DNA of 64,000 bases, from the NCBI RefSeq assembly GCF_000725425.1, contig NZ_CP006019.1, forward strand, positions 992,001 through 1,056,000. Direction: 5' to 3'. Below are positions 36,804-41,688 of the stretch, piece by piece; the stretch's first letter is position 1, and every line of letters begins with the position of its first letter. The DNA is from Palaeococcus pacificus DY20341. GTDB lineage: Archaea > Methanobacteriota_B > Thermococci > Thermococcales > Thermococcaceae. Both the position numbers and the translations under genes were made by a program. The notes under the pieces are model-generated. The model saw nothing but the letters and a program-made list of their open reading frames with translations. It ran no database searches and was not told the origin of the DNA.

Positions 36804-37799
36804 TTATTTTTTAATTTTTAGTCCCATTATTTTTCTGCATATTTCTAAGTGAAACTTCATCTCCTCGTATTCTCCTCTCAAGAGCATTTTGAGCTCGTTT
36901 AACTTGGCCTTCCCTCTAAATTCCCCAAATAGATATGCCCGGTTTATTTGAATTACTCCAAAAACTGCTGCGAGGTTGAATAGCAGGGCGCGAAGCTGAT
37001 GAGGTGCAGCAAACAGCTCATCGAGCTCTCCATGAGGATATTCAAACAAAAAGTGCTCTACTCCTTCGAGCTTTGCTATATCTGTCATAGCTATGTCTGC
37101 AGTTAAAAGTATGGTTAGGGGTGCGTTTTCTTGGTCGAATTTCTTTAAAGTCTTCACTATTAGCTCATCGTTGGTTCTTGCTTCCTCCTTTACGGACTCC
37201 ACTTCAATAGCCCTATCCTTCAGCTTGTCGAATTCTTTCAAGGCTATATATGCAGCCTTTCTTGATTTCATCTTCCTTTTGTTATAGAACTCATTTAAAA
37301 GCTCGCCGTGGTATAAAACCCTCCTCAATGCTTTTATATCCGCTGGTCGGTACTTAAAGTTCATTGAATTTTCAATTTCTTTCTTTACTAGGTCCACGAT
37401 GATTATTTCATAGCCTTTCAAAGGTTTGAAGTTTGATATGAATGAATGGTATAGCACATTGGTATCAGGAGCGAAGACAACTCCTTTTGTCAGCCCTTTA
37501 TAGAGCTCCAAACGCTCTAAGAACTCATCAACGTTGTCATAGCGTATTATGCCTGAGGCCAAAAAACACTCCCTAAAGTCTCTATATGTTGGCAGCTCCT
37601 CCAAAAACTCTTTTCTATCTTTTAGGAAGTCTCTGAAATTTTTTTCACTGGCTAAAACTTTAATCCTGTAGCCGTCGTCATAGACCTCAGCTTTTAGAAG
37701 GTCCATATTGTAAAGTGGGTAGCTAACGGTTATGCCTCTCTTCTGAATTAAATTTAAAAAAATTTGAAGCTCAGGCTTTTCTATTATCAGCTCCCTCAT
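36804..37799 (-). CDS. PIN-domain nuclease-like protein
   Basis: 331 residues. A PIN-type domain lies at about 105-240: D112 in FAPDTNVLYHSF, Glu in DLVKKEIENS near 141, TNDELIVKTLK near 210, and LLTADIAMTDIA near 235. These four acidic sites match PIN ribonucleases. The N-terminal 100 residues and the C-terminal 85 residues are unassigned. Its ATG overlaps the stop of the CARF-like gene by 4 nt, so the two are co-expressed. No typical small antitoxin is next to it. Confidence 0.72.
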   Translation of the reverse strand: MRELIIEKPELQIFLNLIQKRGITVSYPLYNMDLLKAEVYDDGYRIKVLASEKNFRDFLKDRKEFLEELPTYRDFRECFLASGIIRYDNVDEFLERLELYKGLTKGVVFAPDTNVLYHSFISNFKPLKGYEIIIVDLVKKEIENSMNFKYRPADIKALRRVLYHGELLNEFYNKRKMKSRKAAYIALKEFDKLKDRAIEVESVKEEARTNDELIVKTLKKFDQENAPLTILLTADIAMTDIAKLEGVEHFLFEYPHGELDELFAAPHQLRALLFNLAAVFGVIQINRAYLFGEFRGKAKLNELKMLLRGEYEEMKFHLEICRKIMGLKIKK

Positions 37800-38266
37800 T
37801 GCTTATCCTCCATAAAATCCTTGAGAATTTGAATCTGCATCGGGATCATCATGTAGGGCCTGTTGGCAAACTCCATGCTTCGAATTGCCAAATAGAATAC
37901 ATGGTCAACTTTTAAAGGAATGCCATGAATTAGAGCTCCTGCAACTAAAGCTTTTCTCCCGGAGGTTATTTCAACTGCAATTTCACACCCTCTCGATTTT
38001 AGCTCTCGTAAAAGCTCTCCAATTTTTTTGTCTGCCTCCAAAAAATTGGCCTCCTCAATTATCTTCCAACTTATCTTTGGTTTAAATCCAAATGCTTCAG
38101 AAATTATCTCTAAGGCTTCAACAGCTTTAGGAAGCTTGTCCACGTAGATATCTTCAAGAAATATGTAAATTTCGTCAGGATGGTACTTTTTGTGCATGAC
38201 AACCGCGTAGTAAGCGTTTATCATTGCCCATGTAGAGCGGCCCAGCATAGTTACGTAAGCTTTCAT
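37796..38266 (-). CDS. CARF-like Rossmann-fold protein paired with the PIN protein
   Basis: 156 residues. A Rossmann-like pattern: strand YVTMLGRS, helix, strand DEIYIFLED, long helical middle, then IAVEITSGRKALVAGALIHG (97-115) and VDHVFYLAI. The ITSGRKA segment occupies the place of the D(I/T)TGGTK motif of CRISPR-associated Rossmann-fold domains that bind cyclic oligoadenylates. The match is partial (S-G-R for G-G-T). It is the first gene of a two-gene unit with a PIN nuclease. Confidence 0.55.
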   Translation of the reverse strand: MKAYVTMLGRSTWAMINAYYAVVMHKKYHPDEIYIFLEDIYVDKLPKAVEALEIISEAFGFKPKISWKIIEEANFLEADKKIGELLRELKSRGCEIAVEITSGRKALVAGALIHGIPLKVDHVFYLAIRSMEFANRPYMMIPMQIQILKDFMEDKQ

Positions 38267-38747: not shown

Positions 38748-38927
38748 CTAATCTTCGAGGTCATACACAACAATTTTGACTTTCTTGCCTTTCACGACTT
38801 CTTTGAGCTCCCACCAGAGTTTAGTTGGGCTTTCTTTTTTGTGGACTATTTTGTCTCCTTCCCTAATTTCAACCGCTTTCTCGTTGTATTCGACAAAGAC
38901 GCCTTCCTTAGTGAAAATCTGTCTCAT
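38748..38927 (-). CDS. Small conserved hypothetical protein (59 aa)
   Basis: A charged 59-residue protein (MRQIFTKEGVFVEYNEKAV..., ending KVKIVVYDLED) with an alternating pattern that suggests a small beta-rich fold. The ATG at 38925-38927 follows GGGGTGGTGGGA. It is flanked on the same strand by a HAD phosphatase gene (11 nt) and DUF2284 (10 nt). No function is proposed. Confidence 0.65.
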   Translation of the reverse strand: MRQIFTKEGVFVEYNEKAVEIREGDKIVHKKESPTKLWWELKEVVKGKKVKIVVYDLED

Positions 38928-38938
38928 TCCCACCACCC

Positions 38939-39580
38939 CTAAATTTCTTTCGTTATCTTCATCAGCTCGTAGAGAGTCCTTATCTCGTAATCTGAAAAGT
39001 AGTAGTCATTTTCCCCATTTCTGTTTATCCAAATTCCTTTCATTCCAACATTTTTAGCTCCAAAAACATCCTGGTGTAGGCTGTCGCCCACCATAGCTGC
39101 ATCTTTTGGCTCAATACCTGCTTCTTTGAGAGCATAGAAGAAAATTTTTGGATCTGGCTTTACTGTGTTTACATCTTCTCTCGTTACAATAACGTCGAAG
39201 TACTTAGACAGCTTAGTTAAGCGAAGCTTTAACCTTTGATACTCAGGCCCGCTGGTTATCACTCCCAAAAGGTATCCTTCTTTTTTGAGCCATTCAAGCG
39301 TGGGTTTTACGTCAGGAAAAACTGTGAGCTTGTGGGGATAGGCTTTTAAAAGCTCCTCATACGTGATATCCACTCCAAAAAGCTTAAAGAAGAAGTTCCA
39401 ATCATGCCACTCGTAGGTCTCTCTCCGGCCAATAATCTCCTTTAAAAATAAATCTCTTGCTTTTTTCTTTGTTATGCCGAGCCTTTTTGAGAGCTGACTG
39501 TAAACTTGGGGCAAAAGGAGCATTATTAGGGGCTTCTCAGATAACAGAGTCTCATCGATATCAAAGAAAACAGCCTTCAT
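38939..39580 (-). CDS. HAD superfamily hydrolase
   Basis: 213 residues. Motif I FFDIDETLL, motif II ITSG near residue 110, a Lys in motif III (TVKPDPKIF), and motif IV MVGDSLHQDVFGAKN. The cap is helical, as in class I phosphatases such as phosphoglycolate phosphatase. It converges on none; it follows the FtsZ-like gene by 1 nt and belongs to the same run of minus-strand genes. Confidence 0.9.
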   Translation of the reverse strand: MKAVFFDIDETLLSEKPLIMLLLPQVYSQLSKRLGITKKKARDLFLKEIIGRRETYEWHDWNFFFKLFGVDITYEELLKAYPHKLTVFPDVKPTLEWLKKEGYLLGVITSGPEYQRLKLRLTKLSKYFDVIVTREDVNTVKPDPKIFFYALKEAGIEPKDAAMVGDSLHQDVFGAKNVGMKGIWINRNGENDYYFSDYEIRTLYELMKITKEI

Positions 39581-39581
39581 T

Positions 39582-40346
39582 TCACCACCTCTTGATTAGC
39601 AGAGCTAGCACTTCCACGTCGTCGTTTGACTCGTTATCTATCTGAACGCCCCATATTATGTCCTTTTCCTCTAAAATCTCTTGAAAGTGGTTTAGGATTT
39701 TGTGGGCGTTGCTTAGAGGGACGTTCCTCCCTGCTCGTATGTTTATCAGTCCTCTCTCCCAAATTCCCCAATGCCAGTTGAAGTCGATTTCATTAATTAG
39801 CCTCAATATACCAACGTTTCCGCCTTTAATCATGGCAAAAAAGTCCGCATAGTCAACGTTCACTAACATGTTCGCTTCCAAATAGTTGTAGAGCTTTGAG
39901 AACATTTCTCCAATCCTCTTACCTGCCGCATTGAATGCATCCTTTAAAGAGGCCTCCTTGTATTCGTCCAAAACTTCCCACAAGGAGTCATAGAAGACTG
40001 TCTCAAATGTTCCAGCCCACGTAGGCTTTTCAGTGTTCACAAGCTCTATGTATGGCGTGAGCACATAAGCTAGCCTCATGACATCACTTGGAAGGTAAAA
40101 ATCAATTATCTTAGCGATTTCAATGTTCATAGGCTTTTTTTCAAAAATCAGCCATAATATAGCATTCTTATCAACTTTCTTGAAGAAATCCTCAACTTCA
40201 TCAATGAAAGCCTTTTTGTTGAGTAAGTAATCGGAAGTATCAATAACAACTCTCGTTGCTTCAGGTATATTTATATTCCTAACTATAAGCGAGCCATTGT
40301 TTCCAATACCCACAAAAATATGGTTAAAAGGAAAAGAAACTTCCAT
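39582..40346 (-). CDS. Degenerate FtsZ/tubulin-like protein
   Basis: 254 residues. The N-terminal FVGIGNNGSLIVRNI and VVIDTSDYLL align with the FtsZ loop 1 and NTD region. The C-terminal VNVDYADFFAMIKGGNVGI, GLINIRAGRNVPLSNAHKIL and IIWGVQIDN align with FtsZ IN(V)DFADV, ALINITGG and IIFGAVID. The central GGGTGSG signature is absent; its place is taken by FEKKPMNIEIAKI. At 254 residues it is shorter than FtsZ. It likely lost GTPase activity. Assignment rests on motif comparison by eye. Confidence 0.6.
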   Translation of the reverse strand: MEVSFPFNHIFVGIGNNGSLIVRNINIPEATRVVIDTSDYLLNKKAFIDEVEDFFKKVDKNAILWLIFEKKPMNIEIAKIIDFYLPSDVMRLAYVLTPYIELVNTEKPTWAGTFETVFYDSLWEVLDEYKEASLKDAFNAAGKRIGEMFSKLYNYLEANMLVNVDYADFFAMIKGGNVGILRLINEIDFNWHWGIWERGLINIRAGRNVPLSNAHKILNHFQEILEEKDIIWGVQIDNESNDDVEVLALLIKRW

Positions 40347-40355
40347 GAAAATCCC

Positions 40356-41576
40356 CTATTCTAAAGTAGCGTGCTTTTTCTTCATATCCTTTTCGGTCTT
40401 TTGGAATGTTGCCATGAGGAGAGCTATTATTCCGTCGAGGAATATCATTGTAGAGTCCTCAAAGAGCGTCCCCATCGGGGCTACCCACTTATACTCGGTG
40501 AGCATTTGCCTTGCTATATAATCGGTTGGAACGTCTGTTTTTGCTCTTCCTGGGATTGTGACAACTACATCAGATATTCTTCCTAGAGTCGAGTTCTTAT
40601 ATGATGTTAGAGCTACTACTTTTCCTCCTTGGTCTTTAGCTATCTCCGCTGCATCTACTATGCTCTTTGTCTCACCGCTTCCGCTGATTGCTATGAGTAA
40701 ATCCCCTTCTCCAAATGCAGGAGTTATTGTTTCACCGACAACGTAAACGTTAAAGTCAAGGTGCATCAGGCGCATAGCAAAAGCCTTTCCTACCAGACCG
40801 CTTCTTCCAGCACCGTAAATAAAGATTTTATTTGCTCCAATCATTGCGTCGATCATTCCTCTAACTTCTTCGAGCTTTAGTGCATCTACTACATGATTTA
40901 TGTGATCCATTATGTCTCTCATAGCCTTTTTGATTGTGAGCATGTATTCACCCCAAAAGAGGTCTATAATCTTCCTCGTGGTTTCTTCTGGATCTTTTGC
41001 CTTTGTTATTGCTCCTCCGACAATTATAATTGTGGCGCCCATCTCAACGACTTTTGGTATTGTCTCTAAGTTCAGCCCTCCAGCAACTGCAACCGGTATT
41101 TTTACAGCTTTTACAACTTTTTCTAGGTCTTCTAGTGGGGATTTCCCTTGAACTTGCTCATCGATTCCTGTATGGACTAATATATAGTCAACTCCCATCT
41201 TCTCAAGTTGCTTTGCTCTCGCAACCTTATCCTTGACACCGATTAAATCTACCATAACCCTTATTCCATACCTCTTTGCTACCTTAACAGCATCTTTGAT
41301 TGTTTTATCATCTGCAACCCCAAGAATAGAGACAACATCTGCTCCATGCCTTACGGCCATTTCTACCTCCAAAGCCCCTGTGTCCATTGTTTTTAGATCT
41401 GCCACGACCTTTCTATCAGGGAACCTGCGCTTCATGAGCTCAACAGCTCTCATACCCTCCTTCTTGATGAGTGGAGTTCCAACTTCAAGCCAATGGGCTC
41501 CTCCGTGAGCAGCTTTCTCAGCTATGGACATAGCTTGCTCAATATCGGTTAAATCCAGTGCAACTTGCAGGATCAT
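40356..41576 (-). CDS. hps-phi: Bifunctional 3-hexulose-6-phosphate synthase/6-phospho-3-hexuloisomerase
   Basis: 406 residues. The N-terminal HPS half (1-210: LQVALDLTDIEQA, VADLKTMDTGALE, VHTGIDEQVQG) is an orotidine decarboxylase-like barrel. The C-terminal PHI half (215-406: FIYGAGRSGLVGKAFAMRLMHL, ISGSGETKSIVDAA) is a SIS isomerase. The fusion interconverts ribulose 5-phosphate plus formaldehyde with fructose 6-phosphate and supplies ribose phosphate in Thermococcales, which lack the usual pentose phosphate route. The ATG at 41576 follows GGAGGCACTCAAG. Confidence 0.95.
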   Translation of the reverse strand: MILQVALDLTDIEQAMSIAEKAAHGGAHWLEVGTPLIKKEGMRAVELMKRRFPDRKVVADLKTMDTGALEVEMAVRHGADVVSILGVADDKTIKDAVKVAKRYGIRVMVDLIGVKDKVARAKQLEKMGVDYILVHTGIDEQVQGKSPLEDLEKVVKAVKIPVAVAGGLNLETIPKVVEMGATIIIVGGAITKAKDPEETTRKIIDLFWGEYMLTIKKAMRDIMDHINHVVDALKLEEVRGMIDAMIGANKIFIYGAGRSGLVGKAFAMRLMHLDFNVYVVGETITPAFGEGDLLIAISGSGETKSIVDAAEIAKDQGGKVVALTSYKNSTLGRISDVVVTIPGRAKTDVPTDYIARQMLTEYKWVAPMGTLFEDSTMIFLDGIIALLMATFQKTEKDMKKKHATLE

Positions 41577-41688
41577 CTTGAGTGCCTCCATAAGAGTTTG
41601 TCAATAGGAACTCCTTTCGAGCATTTTTAACTTTAACTATTCAAGTGTTGAAGAGAACAATTAGGGAATAGACAAATTTATGACAAGC

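What the first reader, a model, noticed from the sequence alone, without database searches (positions are those of the whole stretch)
39582..40346. FtsZ-like protein without the GTP-binding signature
The C-terminal third matches FtsZ (VNVDYADF, GLINIRAG, IIWGVQIDN) and the N-terminus keeps VGIGNNG and VIDTSDYLL in FtsZ-like positions, but GGGTGSG is missing and replaced by a charged helix-like segment. A tubulin-superfamily protein that has lost GTPase would be expected to act as a scaffold or regulator of other FtsZ proteins. The chain is also about 100 residues short.
Basis: inference. Interest (0 to 1): 0.64.

Follow-up and report, generated by a model that had tools for sequence, protein, structure and literature searches.

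The report
GTP-site-less FtsZ relative in Thermococcaceae
A shortened relative of the cell-division protein FtsZ that has lost its GTP-binding site but kept the loop FtsZ uses to trigger its neighbour's GTP hydrolysis is found throughout one family of heat-loving archaea, always in a gene cluster with sugar-phosphate enzymes, which suggests a filament cap or regulator that could be tested directly.

Summary
In detail: 39582-40346 (-) encodes a 254-aa protein whose C-terminal half (residues ~124-254) is homologous to FtsZ (profile comparison score 89.9; 0 of 100 shuffled controls came close). T1 (GxGxxG) survives. T3 and T4 are deleted and the T6 asparagine is lost. N163, D165, A167 and D168 are invariant in 89 of 89 aligned orthologues and in one more read by eye.

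It is not a decaying fragment. Orthologues occur in 89 of 94 Thermococcaceae genomes; in the other five the gene cluster is missing from, or broken in, the assembly. None occurs in 21 other genomes of the phylum. dN/dS is about 0.15. The order HPS-PHI > FtsZ-like > HAD phosphatase > 62-aa protein is kept in 89 of 91 loci; both exceptions lie at contig ends. All nine Thermococcaceae genomes scanned for FtsZ also carry three canonical FtsZ/CetZ proteins.

Best reading: an FtsZ2-derived paralogue that docks by T7 on the nucleotide face of canonical FtsZ and caps or stimulates it, possibly tied to sugar-phosphate metabolism. Homology and loss of the GTP site are shown; capping is inference. No usable structure model was obtained.

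The parts
39582..40346 (-). FtsZ-like protein without GTP site, 254 aa (called FtsZs here)
   Evidence: ORF; homology to FtsZ; orthologues in 89 of 94 family genomes
40293..40310 (-). T1-like loop, G13-I-G15-N-N-G18
   Evidence: G13 and G15 invariant in 88 of 88 rows, G18 in 87 of 88; aligned to FtsZ T1
40221..40247 (-). T2-like segment VIDTSDYLL (IN-P-x-x-Y-L in most orthologues)
   Evidence: alignment and column counts
40125..40145 (-). site where T4 (GGGTGTG) is deleted; S4 runs almost directly into H4 (F68-EKKPM-N74)
   Evidence: alignment
39981..40007 (-). S6/T6 region FETVFYDSL; the guanine-contacting Asn of FtsZ T6 is absent
39873..39947 (-). core helix H7 equivalent (residues 134-158)
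   Evidence: hhalign from residue 130; helix in the low-confidence model
39843..39869 (-). T7 loop MLVNVDYAD, with both acidic residues of FtsZ T7 (D165, D168)
   Evidence: N163, D165, A167, D168 invariant in 89 of 89 aligned orthologues; the one left out also has it
39585..39836 (-). FtsZ C-terminal domain, shortened: S7-H9 replaced by GNVGILR...WxWGxW; S8, H10, S9 (KDIIWG) and S10 kept
   Evidence: hhalign residues 197-254 score 48.2, 0 of 100 shuffles; FtsZ_C E 0.00047
40356..41591 (-). bifunctional HPS-PHI (RuMP pathway), immediately upstream
   Evidence: NCBIfam RuMP_HxlAB 576.7 bits against a cut-off of 500; conserved neighbour
38939..39580 (-). HAD phosphatase immediately downstream, close relative of PDB 4ygq
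   Evidence: TIGR02253, 172 bits against a cut-off of 169.75; PDB 4ygq E 1.1e-98; conserved neighbour
38748..38936 (-). 62-aa protein with conserved PTxLWWxLKE, last gene of the conserved block
   Evidence: 90 rows found in the fetched loci; conserved neighbour; no Pfam or NCBIfam family

Best explanation
A fast-diverged paralogue of archaeal FtsZ2, present throughout Thermococcaceae, that cannot bind GTP in the FtsZ way but keeps the bottom half of FtsZ: helix H7, the catalytic T7 loop and a trimmed C-terminal domain. Proposed mechanism: it docks through T7 on the exposed GTP face of the terminal subunit of an FtsZ1 or FtsZ2 filament. It offers no nucleotide face of its own, so it ends the filament there. 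Because both T7 acidic residues are intact, it may also trigger hydrolysis in the subunit it caps. It would therefore act as a nucleotide-free cap or GTPase activator that restrains FtsZ assembly. Shown here: homology of the C-terminal half, loss of T3/T4/T6, retention of T7, purifying selection, presence throughout the family, fixed gene neighbourhood. Inferred: FtsZ2 origin, docking, capping, GTPase stimulation, and any link to the neighbouring sugar-phosphate enzymes.
For: C-terminal half homologous to FtsZ. Of 86 FtsZ positions conserved in at least 26 of 27 canonical rows, 13 are identical in all 16 short rows, including all three T7 positions (N, D, D), while 24 are deleted, including the T3 and T4 ones. 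T7 invariant in 89 of 89 plus one although the stem branch is 6.6 changes per column. In FtsZ, T7 of one subunit inserts into the GTP pocket of the next and starts hydrolysis (PMC8456036, passages read). The short clade groups with FtsZ2 rather than FtsZ1 at 94/85 support, and CetZ lies apart at 100/100. Median dN/dS 0.148 over 504 pairs. The own genome has FtsZ1, FtsZ2 and CetZ as possible partners.
Against: No interaction or structure evidence. The model is unusable and its Foldseek search gave no match below E 0.001. The middle of the protein (60-128) has no detectable FtsZ similarity. S7-H9 is replaced by a new tryptophan-rich stretch, so the docking face may be remodelled. T7 residues could be kept for folding. 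The conserved neighbours are metabolic enzymes, not division genes. The long branch makes the FtsZ2 origin uncertain.
Confidence: 0.42

Rival explanations
1. It has left cell division and is a structural or regulatory subunit of a sugar-phosphate module with HPS-PHI, the HAD phosphatase and the 62-aa protein. T1 and T7 would then be remnants forming a different ligand pocket or a subunit contact.
For: Same gene order and strand in 89 of 91 loci, the other two cut by contig ends; genes are 9, 1 and 2 bases apart in the window; no genome was found with the cluster but without the gene; upstream neighbours differ between lineages among the 20 loci compared.
Against: Does not explain why the FtsZ hydrolysis loop is invariant when the protein has no GTP of its own. 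Operon partners in archaea are often functionally unrelated (general knowledge).
Confidence: 0.3
2. It is incorporated along or beside FtsZ filaments as a side-binder or spacer, or forms its own nucleotide-free polymer, acting as a scaffold.
For: New invariant tryptophan-rich stretch W191-x-W193-G-x-W196 and invariant C-terminal W254 look like contact surfaces.
Against: Without T3/T4 the upper face of the FtsZ longitudinal contact is missing; no evidence of polymerisation.
Confidence: 0.15
3. The N-terminal ~125 residues are not a reduced FtsZ domain but an unrelated domain joined to an FtsZ C-terminal half, giving it a ligand-binding function of its own.
For: Residues 60-128 match nothing; N-terminal match to FtsZ1+FtsZ2 is reached by 1-3 of 100 shuffles.
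Against: Residues 12-51 align at the co-linear FtsZ place and beat 100 of 100 shuffles with a wider FtsZ profile (25.2 against a maximum of 20.8), but match HPS-PHI and HAD profiles no better than noise.
Confidence: 0.1
4. Pseudogene or assembly artefact of an FtsZ copy.
For: One of two copies in one genome (G069) is frameshifted.
Against: Open frame in 89 genomes apart from contig-end cuts and that one extra copy, invariant residues, dN/dS about 0.15.
Confidence: 0.01

Closest known systems
Archaeal FtsZ2 (and FtsZ1)
   Same: H7, T7 NxDxAD, C-terminal domain, T1 glycines; tree groups it with FtsZ2 at 94/85
   Different: No T3, T4 or T6 Asn; C-terminal domain trimmed; about 130-150 residues shorter; 27.2 bits against the FtsZ cut-off of 295.2
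ARC3 of plant chloroplasts
   Same: FtsZ-like domain (PMC4593956, passage), thought to inhibit FtsZ1 assembly (PMC3728212, passage). That the domain lacks GTPase residues is recalled. A precedent for a degenerate FtsZ that restrains FtsZ
   Different: Large chimeric plant protein; no sequence comparison made here
FtsZl1 and FtsZl2 families
   Same: Divergent FtsZ-superfamily families found beside canonical FtsZ (PMC2875224, passages)
   Different: FtsZl2 keeps T1, T4, T6 and T7; FtsZl1 has no confident T6-H7. Here the reverse: T4 lost, H7-T7 kept
CetZ
   Same: Third tubulin-superfamily protein of Thermococcales; own genome has one
   Different: The own CetZ keeps GGGTGAG and CetZ lies on a separate branch, 100/100
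FtsZ end-blockers SulA and MciZ
   Same: The proposed result, blocked filament ends (recalled; both named as FtsZ inhibitors in passages of PMC8456036)
   Different: Unrelated in sequence; neither is known as an FtsZ paralogue (recalled)

Membership tests
Canonical FtsZ (TIGR00065) | score over the curated cut-off of 295.2 bits | tested here: not met
   27.2 bits, E 2.3e-6
Canonical FtsZ (TIGR00065) | T4 tubulin signature GGGTG[ST]G | tested here: not met
   deleted in 16 of 16 aligned orthologues; absent from the window protein
Canonical FtsZ (TIGR00065) | T7 NxDxAD | tested here: met
   89 of 89, plus G022
Canonical FtsZ (TIGR00065) | GTP binding and polymerisation | not testable with these tools
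   needs protein
FtsZ/tubulin superfamily (by descent) | significant profile similarity over H7-T7-C-terminal domain | tested here: met
   score 89.9, P 98, 0 of 100 shuffles; PDB FtsZ E 1.2e-7
FtsZ/tubulin superfamily (by descent) | two-domain fold | tested here: inconclusive
   AlphaFold on two sequences, pLDDT 46; Foldseek nothing below 0.001
FtsZ_C (PF12327) | gathering score of 27 bits | tested here: not met
   20.9 bits; 22 of 30 members match at E up to 1
CetZ | groups with CetZ on a tree | tested here: not met
   CetZ apart at 100/100
FtsZl1/FtsZl2 | family-specific inserts between T1 and T4, with T4 kept | tested here: not met
   T4 deleted and the T1-T4 region shortened; definition from passages of PMC2875224
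FtsZ assembly inhibitors (works-like) | binds FtsZ and lowers assembly | not testable with these tools
   needs protein or genetics

The most novel reading that the evidence does not exclude
A built-in metabolic brake on division: in Thermococcaceae a GTP-less FtsZ paralogue with a catalytically complete T7 loop caps FtsZ filaments and triggers hydrolysis at their ends. Its activity is set by sugar phosphates or by its fixed neighbours (HPS-PHI, HAD phosphatase, 62-aa protein), so that pentose-phosphate supply controls when the cell may divide.
Probability: 0.15. Interest if true: 0.82.

Novelty: new variant of a known kind. Interest (0 to 1): 0.57.

Why it matters
A tubulin-superfamily protein that has discarded the nucleotide site but preserved the trans-acting hydrolysis loop would be a natural separation-of-function FtsZ: half of the GTPase active site without the GTP. 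If it caps filaments, it gives a direct handle on how archaeal FtsZ1/FtsZ2 rings are restrained, in a genetically tractable hyperthermophile (Thermococcus kodakarensis; tractability recalled). Its unbroken tie to HPS-PHI raises a testable link between central carbon metabolism and division. The window protein reaches the cut-off of no Pfam or NCBIfam model, so annotation that relies on those models would miss it.

Tried and rejected
Foldseek against PDB gave 0 matches at E up to 0.001. Neither is used as evidence for the fold.

Relatives elsewhere: the search for related loci in genome contigs found one locus, a close relative; viral contigs gave none. Other archaeal phyla could not be searched with the profile, so restriction to Thermococcaceae is shown only within the phylum.

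Alternative folds: HPS-PHI and HAD profiles as decoys score 9.9-15.8 against the pieces of the protein, i.e. noise. eIF4A and other weak PDB hits at E about 1 rejected as chance. DUF4962, ICE1_C and Urm1 Pfam hits rejected: each seen in one of 30 members only.

Pseudogene: rejected on dN/dS and invariance.

Literature: no description of this short family found in the searches; only search listings and passages were seen, never whole papers. PMC9856176 (passages) reports at least one CetZ in each Thermococci species analysed, plus an extra highly divergent superfamily protein in two strains only; whether those are this family was not checked. PMC8178401 and PMC7617429 (passages) mention nothing of it in the passages shown.

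Rows dropped before counts: 90 loci were offered; L146 (G022) was left out by the script's motif filter because it reads FRTVFYDS, not because of T7; L162 lacks the N-terminal part (contig end), so N-terminal columns have 88 rows. That filter also required N[VI]D.AD, so the T7 count is partly by construction; only one of 90 loci failed the filter and that one has NIDYAD. L054 (frameshifted second copy in G069) was not but also has NIDYAD. L116 was left out of the FtsZ conservation count because it is frameshifted, and L115 (partial) out of the tree.

Full report
What is there. The minus-strand ORF 39582-40346 encodes 254 residues from an ATG. The genome it lies in is a single contig of 1,859,370 bases; from memory this length fits Palaeococcus pacificus, but no call names it, and the family name Thermococcaceae used here is likewise my reading: the tools give the family only a code (f1), and one close relative is titled a Thermococci archaeon. 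No curated family reaches its cut-off: FtsZ_C gives 20.9 bits against 27 and NCBIfam ftsZ 27.2 against 295.2. Nevertheless a profile of 30 orthologues finds M. jannaschii FtsZ structures at E 1.2e-7.

How much is FtsZ. Profile-profile comparison with FtsZ1 and FtsZ2 of the phylum gives score 89.9 (probability 98) for residues 124-254, against a maximum of 22.7 in 100 column shuffles. The T7 region (129-182) and the C-terminal domain (197-254) each pass alone with 0 of 100 shuffles. The N-terminal part is weaker: residues 12-51 align with S1-T1-H1-S2-T2 of FtsZ at the co-linear place, reached by 3 of 100 shuffles for 1-112 and 1 of 100 for 1-60, and by 0 of 100 for either when CetZ is added to the FtsZ profile. 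HPS-PHI and HAD decoys score at noise level. Residues 60-128 are not recognisable (30 of 100 shuffles as good); their mapping to S4-H4-S5-S6 rests on order alone.

What is lost and what is kept. Against 27 canonical FtsZ1/FtsZ2 rows, 86 positions are conserved in at least 26. In 16 diverse orthologues 13 of these are identical in every row: three T1 glycines, P172, T197, V198, A218, the three T7 residues N244, D246 and D249 (FtsZ1 numbering), L307, W329 and G330. Twenty-four are deleted, including eight from the end of T2 to T3 (A92 to P112) and six of T4 (G141 to T148). The T6 asparagine (N203) aligns with leucine or phenylalanine. Across 89 aligned orthologues N163, D165, A167 and D168 never vary; the locus dropped by the script's filter, G022, also reads NIDYAD. 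In FtsZ the T7 loop inserts into the GTP pocket of the adjacent subunit and starts hydrolysis (PMC8456036, passages). The protein has thus lost its own GTP site but kept the part that acts on a neighbour's GTP. New invariant features include S6 F114, T116 and F118-S121, GxNxGIxR (175-182), WxWGxW (191-196), KDxIWG (228-233) and a C-terminal tryptophan. Loop and helix names follow the FtsZ convention (PMC8456036, passages); their placement on this protein is from the alignment.

Distribution. In the family Thermococcaceae 89 of 94 genomes carry an orthologue. One search reports matches in 91, but two of these (G049, G061) match only canonical FtsZ; one search counts 91 loci in 89 genomes. Of the five without, G035 and G049 have neither HPS-PHI nor HAD in the assembly, G061 and G063 have HPS-PHI cut at a contig end, and G056 has HAD cut at a contig end. 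No genome was found with the cluster but without the gene. In the 21 other genomes of the phylum, 16 have a match at E up to 0.001, the best at 8.8e-7, far below the orthologues (E 1e-77 or stronger); those whose places are listed are canonical FtsZ genes. Other phyla could not be searched with the profile.

Neighbourhood. HPS-PHI > FtsZ-like > HAD > 62-aa protein, same strand, in 89 of 91 loci; the two incomplete ones (G048, G064) lie on contigs that end there. In the window the gaps are 9, 1 and 2 bases. Among 20 longer loci (the window stretch and 19 others), upstream neighbours differ between lineages. Downstream, another gene is present in 19 of 20 (all but the window); its G022 relative is a D-glutamate-cyclase-like protein, while the window has DUF2284 instead. 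HPS-PHI is the fused RuMP enzyme; the HAD is a close relative of PDB 4ygq. In the outgroup families, 12 of 21 genomes have HPS-PHI-like matches, mostly as separate pieces. So the fused enzyme and the FtsZ-like gene both appear to be features of Thermococcaceae.

Origin. On a 48-row tree the short proteins form one clade (100/100) on a stem of 6.6 changes per column. They group with FtsZ2 (94/85), apart from FtsZ1, and CetZ is separate (100/100). The apparent sister L116 is a frameshifted copy and is not to be trusted. FtsZ2 origin is therefore likely but open to long-branch error. Median dN/dS is 0.148 over 504 pairs with dS between 0.3 and 1.5, maximum 0.40: the gene is under purifying selection.

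Mechanism. The most economical explanation for invariant T7 without T3/T4/T6 is heterotypic docking: T7 enters the GTP pocket of the last subunit of an FtsZ1 or FtsZ2 filament, no further subunit can follow, and hydrolysis in the capped subunit may be triggered. The own genome has FtsZ1, FtsZ2 and CetZ as candidate partners, and all eight other Thermococcaceae genomes scanned have three such proteins each. A precedent for a degenerate FtsZ restraining FtsZ is plant ARC3 (passages). Steps shown: homology, losses, retention, conservation, synteny. Steps inferred: docking, capping, hydrolysis, metabolic control. The main rival is recruitment into the sugar-phosphate module.

Limits. No usable model was obtained. 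No expression or interaction data. Literature was seen only as listings and passages.

Noticed in passing
37796-38266 and 36804-37799 (-): A 156-aa protein weakly similar to the Csa3 CARF family (TIGR01884 E 0.0013) overlaps by four bases a 331-aa PIN-domain protein (PIN_4 E 1e-8). The CARF-like gene is also seen beside this cluster in G001, G002 and G093. Possibly a CARF-PIN ribonuclease pair.
   Followed up: no
38748-38936 (-): The 62-aa protein is found in 90 rows of the fetched loci with a conserved PTxLWWxLKE motif and has no Pfam or NCBIfam family; it is missing from the cluster only at a contig end.
   Followed up: partly
L109, L110, L111, L112, L113, L114 (FtsZ2 genes): In the six FtsZ2 sequences read from genera g2-g5 the T4 signature is GNGTGTG instead of GGGTGTG; the three from g1 and g6, including the window's genome, keep GGGTGTG.
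   Followed up: partly
L018 1498-3480 (-): In genome G074 HPS-PHI and the FtsZ-like protein lie in one open frame of 662 codons, either a fusion or a frameshift error in the assembly.
   Followed up: no
L054 5945-6699 (-) and L033: Genome G069 has two copies of the cluster, one with a frameshifted FtsZ-like gene; G066 also has two copies of the FtsZ-like gene.
   Followed up: no
L120-L139: In the outgroup families HPS and PHI occur mostly as separate genes, whereas Thermococcaceae have the fused enzyme.
   Followed up: partly
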